A DNA stretch of 64,000 bases, taken from Frigoriglobus tundricola (GTDB taxonomy: Bacteria > Planctomycetota > Planctomycetia > Gemmatales > Gemmataceae). Both the position numbers and the translations under genes were made by a program. The stretch covers positions 2,294,001 through 2,358,000 of the forward strand of contig NZ_CP053452.2 in assembly GCF_013128195.2 (NCBI RefSeq), read 5' to 3'. Shown one piece after another: positions 28,022-53,131 of this stretch. The notes below the pieces were generated by a model that worked only from the letters and a program-made list of their open reading frames with translations, was not told where the DNA came from and searched no databases. Each line of letters opens with the position of its first letter. Positions within the stretch are counted from its first letter, which is position 1.

Positions 28022-30204
28022 CTACGGCTTGGCGGGCGCGGGCTTTGGCGCGGGCGGTTCGGTCACCACCATCACTCCGATCGGCGCCGGCTTCACTTTC
28101 GCGCCCTCGAGCGACCGGGCCACCGCCAGCCACGCGGCCTTGCGGTCGGACGTCGCGGCGGTGCTCGCCACCACCCGTTTTTTCTCACTGTCGGTCGGCA
28201 GCCGGCTCAGGGTCGCGAGCGTGACCGCGTCCATCATCGCCTCGTCCGATTCGTTCGCGGCGATCAACGTCACGACGAGTTTCTCGTACTTGTCGGGCTC
28301 GACCGCGGCTCGGTTCGGAACGGGCGGGCTCGGTTTGACCGCCTGGGGAGACGGCACCGGCGGCTTCGCTCCGCCCGGTTGCACCCAGACGATGAGCCGA
28401 TCGGCGGTCGGCTCCTTGATCTGGTGGAGCGTGACCACCCGCGGTTCGAGCATCTTCGCTTTCCAGGCGGCGCCGAGTTTCTTCTGCACGGCCGGGTCCT
28501 TCAGCAGCGTGTCGAGCAGCCTCTCGCGCTTCTTCGGGTCCGGGTCCTCGGTAAAGTACTTCGTTTCCAGCGCGGTCGGGGCGTTCCCGCGCACTTCGGC
28601 CAGCGCCCGCTTGAGGAACTCGGCGTCGGAATCGACGGACGCCTCCATCGAGAAGGTCAGTTCGTTGGTGCCAACGATGCGCGGGGCGGCACCGAGGACC
28701 GCGAGACCGATCGGGTCCGGACCGACCACGTGGGAGTTGGCGACGATTTTCCAATCGGTGACGGCTGTGAGCGGGTTCAACGCGGCCTTCCGTCCGCTCG
28801 CGGCCCTCGCGGGCTTCGCCTCGGTCGTGTCCCGAGCGCCCAGATAGAGATCGATTTCGTGCGCCCCCTCGCCGTGGGAGACCACGCGGCCGAACACATC
28901 GGTCGAGGTGTACATCGTCGCGATGCCGCTCGACGCCTGTACCGACCCCGTGGCGGGGGCCGGCTTCACGTGCCGCGCGTCGCCGGCTTCGAGGACCAGT
29001 TCGACGAACTGTTTGTCCGCCGAGAACCGCGCGTGCAGCACTCTGACATCGGCCGGCAGGCCGAGCTTCTTCGCGAGTGCCGCGCGCGTCGCCTCGTCGT
29101 TCGCCATCCAGCCCACCACCTTGGTGCGCTTCTCGGCGTCGGCGTCGGTCACGAAGAACCACGTCTCCACGTCGGTCGGCGGCGTGCCGCGGGCGTCCAG
29201 ACACAGGCGCCGGAGGAAGGCCGCGTCGTCCGCTTTCGGGTCGGGCAGTCCTTTCAGACGGGCCGCGGGGCGGGCGGCGGGTTCGGGCGCGGCCCCCGCG
29301 ACCTTCGTCTGGGCGGGGGCGCGCCGGGGCCGGGCCCGTCGCCGGCGGCGGGCACGAGCCCCAGGCCGAGGCCGGTCGTCAGCGCGAGCGCGGTCACGGC
29401 GAGGAACGCGACCGCTTTCAACTTGGCGAGCAGCATCGTCCGCAGGACGCCTTCCGAGAGTTGGGCGCGGTTGCGGACACGAGCGCGTTCGCGGCGGCCC
29501 CCGCTTCGACCGCGCACCACCCGGGCGGCCAGTGCGGCCGGCACGGCCGCGGCGGACGCGTGAACCCCGAGCAGCCCCGCCAGCGCCCCGCCGGAGAGCG
29601 TGACGCCGCGGCGGGTGAGCCGCTGCGCCAGCGTGCGCCGGGCGGCCGCGAGCCGCGTCGCGAGCGTGGCCGGGGCCACGTTCAGGTGCTTCGCCACCTC
29701 GCGCTGCGGGCGGCCCTCCAGGTCGCACAGCACGACCGGGAGCCGGAGCTTGTCCGGCAGGCGGGCGAGTTCCTCGTCGATCACCGGTTGCAGGTCGGTC
29801 CAGGGGCGCCGGGGCCGGCGCGATCGACTCGGGCATGACGTCCACCTGCTTCTCGCGGGACCGGCGGCGGGCCAGAACCGTTCGCGCCTTCAGCGCCGTG
29901 CGGTACGCGACCCCGTACAGCCAGTTGCCGACCCGCTCCCGCGGGCGGACCGACGCGCGCGCCGGGCCAGCACCAGGAACGCCGCCTGGAACGCGTCGTC
30001 CGCGGTGGTTCGGTCGCCCACCACGCGGCGGCACACGCCCAGCACCATCGGCCCGTGCCGGCGCACCAGTTCCGCGAACGCCTCCGCGTCGCGCGCGAGT
30101 ACGAACGCGCCGAGCAGGTCGCCGTCGGACCGGGCCGCCGACTGGCGGGCGAGAACGACCCGCCGCAGGGTCGGCATCAGACGATCGGCTTGCCCGAGGG
30201 GCAT
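28022..30204 (-). pseudogene. ECF sigma factor fused to DUF1549/DUF1553-like modules, frameshifted
   Basis: From ATG 30204 the frame encodes sigma region 2 (AFAELVRRHGPMVLGVCRRV, AFQAAFLVLARRA), then jumps near 29960 to another frame for VRPRERVGNWLYGVAYRTAL, back near 29810 for region 4 (IDEELARLPDKLRLPVVLCD, QREVAKHLNVAPATLATRLA) and a transmembrane helix, and again near 29325 for the long C-terminal part. That part has two DUF1549-like units (FLRRLCLDARGTPPTDVETW; FLKRALAEVRGNAPTALETK) and a DUF1553-like end (TLATLSRLPTDSEKKRVV). Each jump lies in a GC-rich run. If intact, the product would be about 728 residues: a sigma factor tethered to the membrane with an external domain. It may be a decayed gene or carry sequence errors. 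Confidence 0.7.
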
Positions 30205-50916: not shown

Positions 50917-53131
50917 TCACGGCTTGTTCCGCAGGGCGTCGATCTTCTCTTGTATCCGTGCCGCGTCGGCTTCGGCGGTCCCGAGCGGTCCGGGCTTCAC
51001 GGTCTTTTCGCGGGTGTAGCCGGTGTGCTTCATCCACGCGGCGGACCGCAGCTCGCGCTTCTGCTCGACGAGTTTGAAGAGCGGGTCGGCCTTGATCGTC
51101 GCAACGCTCTCGTCGGGCGCCGGAGCCCCGAGCGCCGCGAGGACCGTTCGGGCCATCAGCAGGTGCCCGTCGTCGCCGGGGTGGACCTTGTCTCCGGAGA
51201 AGGGCGCCGGGCGGGCGTCGCGCGCCTTCCGCATCGCGGTGTGCAGGTCGATCACGGTCACGCCGGGCACCTTCAGCTCCGCCTCCCACCGCGCGTACGC
51301 ACCGAGGACCGCGTCGTAGTCGGTTTCGCCCGCTTTGGCCCGGGAGTCGTAGATCGGCGGCGTGACGAGGAAGATCCGCTTCACACCGGCGCCCCTGCAC
51401 TGCTCGATCAGCTTCGTGACGCCCTTCTGGAACGCGGCGAACCGGTCCGTGTCGAGCGGCAGGTAGATGCCGTCGTTCATCCCGTAGCACGCAAAAACGA
51501 TCTCCGGCTTGGCCCTCTCCAGCACGCGGCCGAGGCGCTCGAACAGGCACGGGCGGGGAAACTGCCCCGCGGCGTGACCGTCCTCGCTCAGCCCCGAGAG
51601 CGTTTCGCTCGCGAGCCCGAGGCCGAGGACGTCGAACGCCTTCTCCGGGTGCGCCCGTTCGAGGTAGTAAGTCGTGAACCCGATGTACCCGCCGGCCTGT
51701 GTGATGCTGTCGCCGAGGAACACGATCCGCTTGCCGGCGAGCGCATCGATCTCGCCGGCCGTCGGCGCGACGACCGGCACCGCGTCCGCGCTGGACTTCG
51801 ACTTCAGCCCCACAGTGTTGACGGCAATGACGCGGTAGGTGTGCGTCTTGCCGGCTTCGACCGTCGCGTCGGTGAACCGCATCGGGACGAGCGGTTGCGT
51901 GGGCGTGTCGCTGTACTGGAGGTTCTGGAACACCGGTCGGCCGAACGGGTTCTTGCCCTTTTCGGGCACGTGGGCGAGGACCCGGCCGTCGCGTTCGATG
52001 ATGAAGCCCGCGAGCCCGCTCTCGAGATCGGCTTCGGCCTCCCAGGTCACTTCGGTGCCCCGCACGCGCACGTTCGTCGGTGCGGGCGGGGCGGTGGGGT
52101 CGGTCACCTTCGTGTCCTTGACGTACTCCATCCACGCCTTCGCCACCGCCGCGTTCGGCAGCCACGCGGCCTTGAGCGGCTCGCCGGCGAACTTCGCGGC
52201 CGGGGCCGCTTCCGTACCGATCGGCGGCGCGAGCCACGCCGGGTCCGTCGGCGCGCGCCGAGCGGATCACCGGCGGCCTTCGGCAGCGCGCGCGGAGGCA
52301 GGCGTCGAGCCACGGGATCGCGAGGTAGCGCTGGTTGCCGCAGTCGTGACTCGACAGCGGATCGACGGCCACGCCGACGAGTCCGCCCCGCCCGCGGACC
52401 GCGGTGAAGAACACCTCGTTGGCGGGCCAGACGCCGGCGAACGGCGGGGCCTTTTCGGTCACGCCCTCTTTCGTGCCCAGGTTGCACATCAGCGGCACCC
52501 GGAGCGCGGCGTCGGGCAGTTTGTGTGCCTTGATTCCCTTACGCGCCGGGTCGTCGCTCAAAAGCGGGACGCCCGAGCGCAGCCACGCCGCCGCGACCCG
52601 ATCGGGGTGCAGCATCACCATCCCGCCGGCCCAGTGCCCGCCGCCGCTGTGCCCCCACAGCGCCCAGGGCACCTTTGCCAGTTCGGGGTGGCCCGACTTC
52701 GCGCCGAGATCGGCGAGCGCCTTCTGGAACGCCGCGTCGGAGCCGTTCCGCGGGTCGCACCACATCTGGCAGTCGGCCTTCTCCGGTTGCTCGTAGGCCG
52801 GGGAGAGGAGCGCGCAACCGTGTTCCTTCGCCAGCGCCTGCCAGTGCAAGTCGTACGCGCCGGTGAGGCCCGACCGGCACGACCCCTCGCCGCACCCGTG
52901 CTGGTGGACGATCACCCCGCGGAGCGCCTTCACGCCCGGGGGAACCCAGACCGTGTAGTTCGCCCCGAAGATCAGTTCTCCCGGTTTGTCGGACGCCTCG
53001 TAACGCACGCGGTAGTACGGCGCTTCGGCGGCCGGGAAGACGTCGTAGGGCGGCTTCTGGGCGTAGAGGTCGGTCGCCCACGCGGCGAGGAGGATCACGA
53101 CCGCGCCATAGCGTTTCGCTGTTCCGAGCAT
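50917..53131 (-). pseudogene. alpha/beta-hydrolase-Fn3-SGNH hydrolase fusion, frameshifted
   Basis: From ATG 53131 (AGGAGA upstream) a signal peptide and alpha/beta-hydrolase-like half ([40 protein letters not shown]) are followed, after two frame changes near 52280 and 52255, by an Fn3-like region and an SGNH/GDSL hydrolase: [35 protein letters not shown], and [15 protein letters not shown]. All three SGNH blocks are intact. Both shifts are in CGCGCG runs, so they may be sequence errors. If intact, the product is about 737 residues, secreted, with two hydrolase domains, probably acting on esterified carbohydrate. Confidence 0.72.

What the first reader, a model, noticed from the sequence alone, without database searches (positions are those of the whole stretch)
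28022..30204. Sigma factor fused to DUF1549/DUF1553-like modules, with three frame changes
Reading in three segments gives sigma regions 2 and 4, a transmembrane helix, two DUF1549-like units and a DUF1553-like end. A sigma factor physically tied to an extracytoplasmic domain would be a direct sensor-regulator without an anti-sigma factor. All three shifts fall in GC-rich runs (near 29960, 29810 and 29325).
Basis: partly seen in the sequence, partly recalled or inferred. Interest (0 to 1): 0.58.

Follow-up and report, generated by a model that had tools for sequence, protein, structure and literature searches.

The report
Membrane-anchored sigma factor with DUF1549/DUF1553 pieces
A transcription switch (sigma factor) of a Gemmata-type bacterium is built in one piece with a membrane anchor and an outer part made of pieces of two planctomycete protein families; relatives carry it whole, so the broken copy here is probably a sequencing fault or a very recent break.

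Summary
The fusion is real. Window 28022-30204 (-) encodes an ECF sigma factor (regions 2 and 4), one hydrophobic membrane segment, two short units matching the start of DUF1549/PSCyt2 and one matching the end of DUF1553/PSD1. Three net frame changes are confirmed; comparison with relatives points to five frame-changing indels, two of which cancel. Homologs with sigma factor and all three units in one open frame exist in 16 of the 18 Gemmataceae genomes that carry the gene (95 searched, three genera); of the other two, one is cut by a contig end and one is this window. The 16 sigma domains group together against 31 other sigma rows. The breaks lie in 77% GC sequence, conserved sigma positions are kept, and sigma paralogs of this genome are broken far more often (18 of 108) than in two relatives (3 of 173): consensus error, or very recent decay, is likelier than an old pseudogene. 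Membrane segments behind the sigma part are usual here (26 of the 29 nearest paralogs), and Gemmataceae sigma factors with WD40 extensions are published, so this is a new variant of a known kind. Best mechanism (inferred): a tethered sigma factor freed by proteolysis when its outer part senses a signal, without a separate anti-sigma factor.

The parts
28022..30204 (-). whole broken gene, ATG at 30204 to TAG at 28022; intact same-genus relatives encode 706-809 aa
29884..30069 (-). sigma-70 region 2 (broken once near 29960); lower end placed by homology to L050
   Evidence: Pfam PF04542 in segment 1; full region in 9 of 9 relatives
29629..29781 (-). sigma-70 region 4
   Evidence: Pfam PF08281 E 3.4e-10
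29347..29436 (-). single hydrophobic (transmembrane) segment with K-L-K at its head; in fusions it ends in P-A-x-A in 13 of 17 rows (the window itself is one residue shorter there)
   Evidence: hydropathy, flank charges, motif, invariant P290 A291 A293 in A1
29051..29245 (-). unit 1, DUF1549-start-like
   Evidence: profile u1 112.6 bits, Pfam PSCyt2, four helices in the model of a relative
28439..28639 (-). unit 2, DUF1549-start-like, homologous to unit 1
   Evidence: profile u2 120.2 bits, u1-u2 hhalign probability 98.6, Pfam PSCyt2
28100..28300 (-). unit 3, DUF1553-end-like
   Evidence: profile u3 86.2 bits, hits near the C-end of free-standing DUF1549-DUF1553 proteins
29957..29965 (-). frame change 1
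29798..29806 (-). frame change 2
29315..29330 (-). third net frame change, in the linker behind the membrane segment

Best explanation
SHOWN: the locus holds one gene of a conserved Gemmataceae family: an ECF sigma factor (regions 2 and 4), a conserved stretch ending in one hydrophobic segment, then an extension of three small units (two DUF1549-start-like, one DUF1553-end-like) joined by variable, partly proline-rich linkers. The copy read here is broken by several small indels in very GC-rich DNA while its sigma part stays as conserved as in intact relatives. INFERRED: the protein sits in the cytoplasmic membrane with the sigma domains inside and the units outside, and is its own tether. While whole it is held at the membrane; when the outer units meet their ligand or partner, the outer part is cut off (perhaps at the P-A-x-A end of the membrane segment) and a site-2 protease frees the sigma domains to load RNA polymerase. 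The breaks are most likely consensus errors of the assembly in GC-rich sequence, so the living organism probably has the gene whole.
For: Same order of parts in one frame in 9 same-genus relatives and in 16 of 18 gene-bearing genomes of 95 Gemmataceae. The sigma domains of the 16 fusions are one side of a branch, support 100/95, against 29 paralogs of this genome and 2 sigma-WD40 rows. One strong hydrophobic segment; K/R exceed D/E in front of it in 9 of 9 relatives, D/E exceed K/R behind it in 5 of 9. 26 of the 29 nearest paralogs have such a segment at that place. P-A-x-A at its end in 13 of 17 fusion rows. No flanking frame of the window shared with eleven relatives. Breaks: 18 of 108 sigma loci of this genome carry split pieces or stops against 3 of 173 in G002 and G003, Fisher p 5e-6; shifts sit at high GC; the window departs from 4 of 137 otherwise invariant sigma columns, relatives 0-7.
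Against: No experiment or read data. The charge rule is weak on the outer side (5 of 9). The first unit weakly resembles helix-turn-helix models in several relatives (L054 PF13518 27.3 bits, cut-off 25, but no single stretch passes), which would suit a cytoplasmic part. The P-A-x-A motif lies in alanine-rich sequence. Nothing shows proteolysis; site-2 protease genes exist but ring in all 14 control genomes too. Against the error reading: the sampled frame-shift rate is only 7.6 per 100 kb coding against 3.2 and 5.3 in two relatives (24 against 25 shifts, p 0.03); four or five indels in one gene are more than such a rate predicts; the C-terminal part departs from 13 of 87 invariant columns (relatives 0-10); pairwise dN/dS with the window is mostly somewhat higher; the gene is not found in 9 of 18 same-genus relatives.
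Confidence: 0.5

Rival explanations
1. The window copy is a genuine, recent pseudogene: the fusion is real in relatives but has been inactivated in this strain, as other sigma paralogs of the expanded family may have been.
For: Several frame-changing indels in one gene; 18 of 108 sigma loci broken while the sampled genome-wide excess of frame shifts is small; gene not found in 9 of 18 same-genus relatives; 13 of 87 invariant C-terminal columns changed, the highest of the ten rows.
Against: All the sites lie in the GC-rich 5' 40% of the gene and none was seen in the 1.3 kb behind it; each reading segment is open over its matched length; sigma positions as conserved as in relatives; third-position GC 0.907 within the relatives' range 0.76-0.98.
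Confidence: 0.33
2. The extension is cytoplasmic and works like the soluble C-terminal extensions of ECF41/ECF42, by contact with the sigma domains; the hydrophobic segment only packs or attaches peripherally.
For: ECF41 and ECF42 factors carry fused C-terminal domains with regulatory roles (PMC8103513 passages; PMC4598750 passages); helix-turn-helix-like scores of unit 1.
Against: Hydropathy 1.85-2.22 over 19 residues in nine relatives with K-L-K at its head; a similar segment in 26 of 29 near paralogs; DUF1549/DUF1553 proteins are usually regarded as exported (recalled).
Confidence: 0.15
3. The protein stays in the membrane and acts there: it recruits RNA polymerase at the membrane, and the extension fixes its place by binding wall or DUF1549-DUF1553 proteins rather than sensing.
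For: In the related Tuwongella five ECF sigma factors were recovered only from the Triton- or SDS-soluble fractions, three of them in a single experiment (PMC8567305 passages).
Against: Fractionation does not tell tethered from aggregated protein; no direct evidence.
Confidence: 0.2
4. Programmed frame-shifting or recoding makes the protein from the broken frame.
For: Protein similarity continues on both sides of the sites.
Against: Several sites without an evident common motif (by eye); intact relatives need none.
Confidence: 0.01

Closest known systems
ECF sigma factors of Gemmataceae with WD40 or other large C-terminal extensions (group name ECF01-Gob is recalled; Jogler 2012 and Mahajan 2020 are not held here)
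   Same: Sigma regions 2 and 4, then a membrane segment, then a large variable extension; the 30 best rows of this genome are 41-55% identical over the sigma query, own gene left out
   Different: Extension made of DUF1549-start and DUF1553-end pieces; no WD40 model below E 0.01 in the nine relatives (one at 0.08)
PSCyt2-PSD1 (DUF1549-DUF1553) proteins
   Same: Units 1-2 match the first part of DUF1549, unit 3 the last part of DUF1553 and just behind it
   Different: About 60-70 of 209 DUF1549 positions only; the long middle is missing; a sigma factor in front
ECF41 / ECF42 (SnoaL_2 / TPR extensions)
   Same: Domain fused behind sigma region 4 as a regulator (PMC8103513 passages)
   Different: Those extensions are soluble (recalled); here a membrane segment lies between
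pro-sigma-K of Bacillus
   Same: A sigma factor that is itself the substrate of an intramembrane protease (PMC6242693 passages)
   Different: N-terminal pro-sequence and not an ECF factor (recalled); here release is only inferred
RseA-type anti-sigma factors
   Same: One membrane span couples an outer domain to an inner sigma factor (PMC4598750 passages)
   Different: There two proteins, here one

Membership tests
ECF (group 4) sigma-70 factor | sigma region 2 and region 4, no region 3 | tested here: met
   PF04542 and PF08281 over cut-off in 9 of 9 relatives and in the window segments, no region-3 model among the matches; best solved relatives by sequence are ECF SigE chains
Gemmataceae ECF with membrane-anchored C-terminal extension | transmembrane segment behind the sigma part | tested here: met
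   hydropathy only
Gemmataceae ECF-WD40 | WD40/beta-propeller extension | tested here: not met
   no WD40 model below E 0.01 in 9 relatives; present in other sigma paralogs
named ECF group (ECF classification) | match to the group's own model | not testable with these tools
   group models not on hand
PSCyt2 / DUF1549 | match over the Pfam cut-off | tested here: met
   58.1 bits, cut-off 29.8, two stretches together
PSCyt2 / DUF1549 | full-length domain (209 positions) | tested here: not met
   best stretches cover about positions 14-81
PSD1 / DUF1553 | match of PF07587 | tested here: not met
   not among matches to E 1 or 0.1; similarity to the family's end only by profile u3
sigma factor released by regulated intramembrane proteolysis | cleavage and release of the sigma part | not testable with these tools
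   needs bench work
pseudogene | confirmed inactivating indels | tested here: inconclusive
   breaks seen in the assembly, no reads available

The most novel reading that the evidence does not exclude
A one-protein transmembrane signalling system: an ECF sigma factor that is its own membrane tether and own sensor, its outer part assembled from the end pieces of DUF1549-DUF1553 proteins so that it competes with or watches those abundant planctomycete proteins (PF07583 has 45 matches in this genome, two of them in this gene), and is freed by cleavage at a signal-peptide-like P-A-x-A site followed by intramembrane proteolysis. The DUF1553-end-like unit would be a shared outer docking cap, since it also stands at the end of two other sigma factors of this genome, one match strong and one weak.
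Probability: 0.25. Interest if true: 0.65.

Novelty: new variant of a known kind. Interest (0 to 1): 0.42.

Why it matters
This Gemmata-type genome carries about a hundred sigma factors related to this one, and how they are controlled is not known to me. A family whose outer part is made from recognisable pieces of two very common planctomycete families of unknown function gives a testable handle on both questions: what such sigma factors sense, and what DUF1549/DUF1553 proteins do. It also warns that frame breaks in GC-rich sigma genes of this assembly should not be read as gene loss without checking.

Tried and rejected
Programmed frame-shifting: rejected, several sites and none needed in relatives. 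A conserved partner (anti-sigma factor) beside the gene: none of the window's flanking frames of 100 aa or more (17001-43000) matches a flank of eleven relative loci at E 1e-15 (some flanks are short because the contigs end); four of these relatives (L055, L056, L094, L097) share an upstream gene with each other, which is TruD in L056 and was read as unrelated. A solved relative of the extension: none by sequence (best E 0.37). The fold search with units 2-3 gave no Foldseek match at E 0.001 or better; the second look reached Z 5.4 at most, with phycobilisome linker and EF-hand domains over unit 3, too weak to use. Full-length model poor (mean pLDDT 51); the blocks over units 2 and 3 score about 80, unit 1 about 62. 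The first named-genome scan with the window protein found nothing; the scan with an alignment worked. Literature searches for DUF1549 or DUF1553 with ECF/sigma factor and Planctomycetes, C-terminal extension or membrane anchor with Planctomycetes, Gemmata or Gemmataceae with WD40 and the term ECF01-Gob (no paper): nothing seen in their listings, or in the passages read, describes a sigma-DUF1549 fusion, but key papers are not held.

Full report
WHAT IS THERE. On the minus strand, ATG at 30204 to TAG at 28022, three reading segments give an ECF sigma factor, a hydrophobic segment and a C-terminal extension. An HMM of codon usage trained on 400 kb of the same genome outside the window finds three frame changes by itself at 29965, 29798 and 29322; elsewhere in the 64 kb it sees one more shift not explained by a stop codon, at 52247, and four that look like ordinary gene overlaps. 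Alignment with five relatives shows four frame-changing gaps in the window, near 29960, 29803, 29510 and 29468; the last two cancel, and the third is drawn as an 11-base gap in a poorly conserved stretch, so its true size is open. The change near 29325 lies in a linker that cannot be aligned.

INTACT RELATIVES. A same-genus search (19 genomes with the own one) gave strong homologs in 9 of 18 relatives. Each encodes sigma region 2, region 4, a membrane segment and units 1-3 in one frame of 706-809 aa. In the family, 18 of 95 genomes have the extension at E 1e-20 or better: 10 of 19 in the own genus, 6 of 6 in genus g37, 2 of 4 in g20, none in the other 36 genera; only 16 candidates per genome were scored in that search. 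In 16 of the 18 the sigma factor is in the same frame; G092 is cut by a contig end, and the window is broken. All three units are found by profile in all eight rows of the two other genera that I tested, G092's included. Named records include Gemmata sp. IIL30 and several MAGs; of the nine strong ones (L089-L097) eight have the sigma factor in the same frame and L095 is cut. The gene is not found in 9 of 18 same-genus relatives (7 of them 93% complete or more, two 65-68%), so the genus can do without it. In a tree of 47 sigma domains (9 own-genus fusions, 5 of g37, 2 of g20, 29 nearest paralogs of this genome, 2 sigma-WD40 rows) the 16 fusions are one side of a branch, 100/95, in all 200 bootstrap trees; apart from one sigma-WD40 row the outside rows are all from this genome, so a single origin is supported, not proved. 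The broken window copy is not in that tree.

THE MODULES. Units 1 and 2 are homologous to each other (hhalign 98.6). The unit 2 profile hits 32 of 32 other loci brought in (L098-L129), near the start of DUF1549 where Pfam placed it in the six that I scanned. The unit 3 profile hits 24 of these 32 loci at E 0.01 or better, mostly near the C-end; in L100, for example, PSD1/DUF1553 spans 607-834 and unit 3 matches 797-853 of 863. These loci were found with an alignment that contained the units, so this is not an independent sample. Unit 3 does not align with units 1-2 beyond a short motif (3-15% probability). So the extension looks like a DUF1549-DUF1553 protein whose middle is missing and whose first part is doubled. 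The model of one relative shows four helices in units 1 and 3 and four or five in unit 2. In this genome unit 3 also rings in two other sigma genes: C1:510009-510185 (E 6.6e-9; 813-aa frame with sigma regions and a WD40-like part) and, weakly, C1:7720538-7720657 (E 7.5e-5; 735-aa frame whose sigma part is itself split). G003 has a counterpart of the first.

SURROUNDINGS AND PARALOGS. The sigma query has 130 matches in this genome (150 of 216 candidates scored); after joining 14 second pieces and dropping 8 rows above E 1e-9 I count 108 loci. Of the 29 nearest paralogs fetched, the hydropathy peak behind the sigma part is 1.70 or more in 26; L077 has 1.46, L078 1.41 (a broken frame) and L081 0.54 (a short frame). 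Fourteen of these were scanned with Pfam: all 14 have both sigma regions, three match PD40 and two or fewer match each of the other propeller models shown (list cut at 25 of 48 families). The direct neighbours in the window are an M61 peptidase with a sub-threshold PDZ match and a protein with no Pfam match.

BROKEN OR MISREAD? For error: 18 of 108 sigma loci of this genome have split pieces (14, the present gene included) or stops inside the match (4), against 1 of 68 in G003 and 2 of 105 in G002, counted by hand in the same way (p 5e-6). In two of the four stop cases (L204, L205) the HMM saw no shift, so these may be true gene ends or nonsense changes. Shifts in the sigma loci fetched (24 in 15 loci, a more permissive HMM setting) sit at mean GC 79%, 15 of 24 at 80% or more, while 6% of sampled coding positions are that GC-rich; shifts in the two control genomes also lean to higher GC, so part of this is the method. 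The 5' part of the gene has 32% of its 60-mers at 80% GC or more, the rest 4%. In the sigma part 4 of 137 otherwise invariant columns are changed, relatives 0-7; GC by codon position is within the relatives' range. For decay: the sampled shift rate is only 7.6 per 100 kb coding against 3.2 and 5.3 (p 0.03); the indels in this gene exceed any such rate; the C-terminal part departs at 13 of 87 columns (relatives 0-10); the window branch is longer than its nearest neighbours (0.48 against 0.30-0.37) though shorter than the longest (0.58). I put error at about 0.65 and recent decay at about 0.33.

HOW IT PROBABLY WORKS. One hydrophobic span with K-L-K at its head suggests sigma inside, units outside. 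The span ends in P-A-x-A in 13 of 17 fusion rows and in a similar small-x-Ala pattern in 3 more, and the sequence behind it is variable; this resembles a signal-peptidase site, but the region is alanine-rich, no test against chance was made, and the window copy itself is one residue shorter there. Together with the absence of a shared neighbour this fits a sigma factor held at the membrane and freed by proteolysis. Steps shown: architecture, conservation, single span by hydropathy. Steps inferred: topology, sensing, cleavage, release, target genes.

WHAT IS KNOWN. The review PMC8103513 (passages) lists ECF42, metal-responsive and SnoaL_2-bearing ECFs as factors with C-terminal extensions and notes that more exist; PMC4598750 (passages) mentions ECF41 and groups with unusually large C-terminal extensions, citing Jogler 2012; PMC8567305 (abstract and passages) and PMC11032199 (one passage) describe ECF-WD40 proteins as innovations of this lineage. 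None of the passages seen names DUF1549 or DUF1553 in a sigma factor; the two terms do not occur in PMC8567305. So: a new variant of a known kind, not a new kind.

Noticed in passing
G000:C1:510009-512237 (L227) and G000:C1:7720538-7722698 (L189): Two further sigma factors of this genome end in a DUF1553-end-like unit behind a WD40-like part (the second match is weak, and its sigma part is frame-broken).
   Followed up: partly
G000, 18 sigma loci (e.g. L188-L203): Sigma paralogs of this assembly are broken about ten times as often as in two relatives, often at very high GC; a warning for any reading of gene loss in this genome.
   Followed up: partly
window 52247 (-): One more frame change without a stop codon seen by the codon HMM.
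   Followed up: no
unit 3, window 28100-28300: The predicted fold of unit 3 in a relative resembles phycobilisome linker domains weakly (Z 5.4, 66 residues, rmsd 2.7), tied with EF-hand domains; may be chance for a small helical unit.
   Followed up: partly
unit 1 in L051, L054, L057, L058: Weak helix-turn-helix Pfam scores over unit 1, odd for an outer domain.
   Followed up: no
whole assembly: Its sizes (C1 9,832,702 bases; 24,691 in the other contig by subtraction) recall Frigoriglobus tundricola PL17; from memory, not verified by any search.
   Followed up: no
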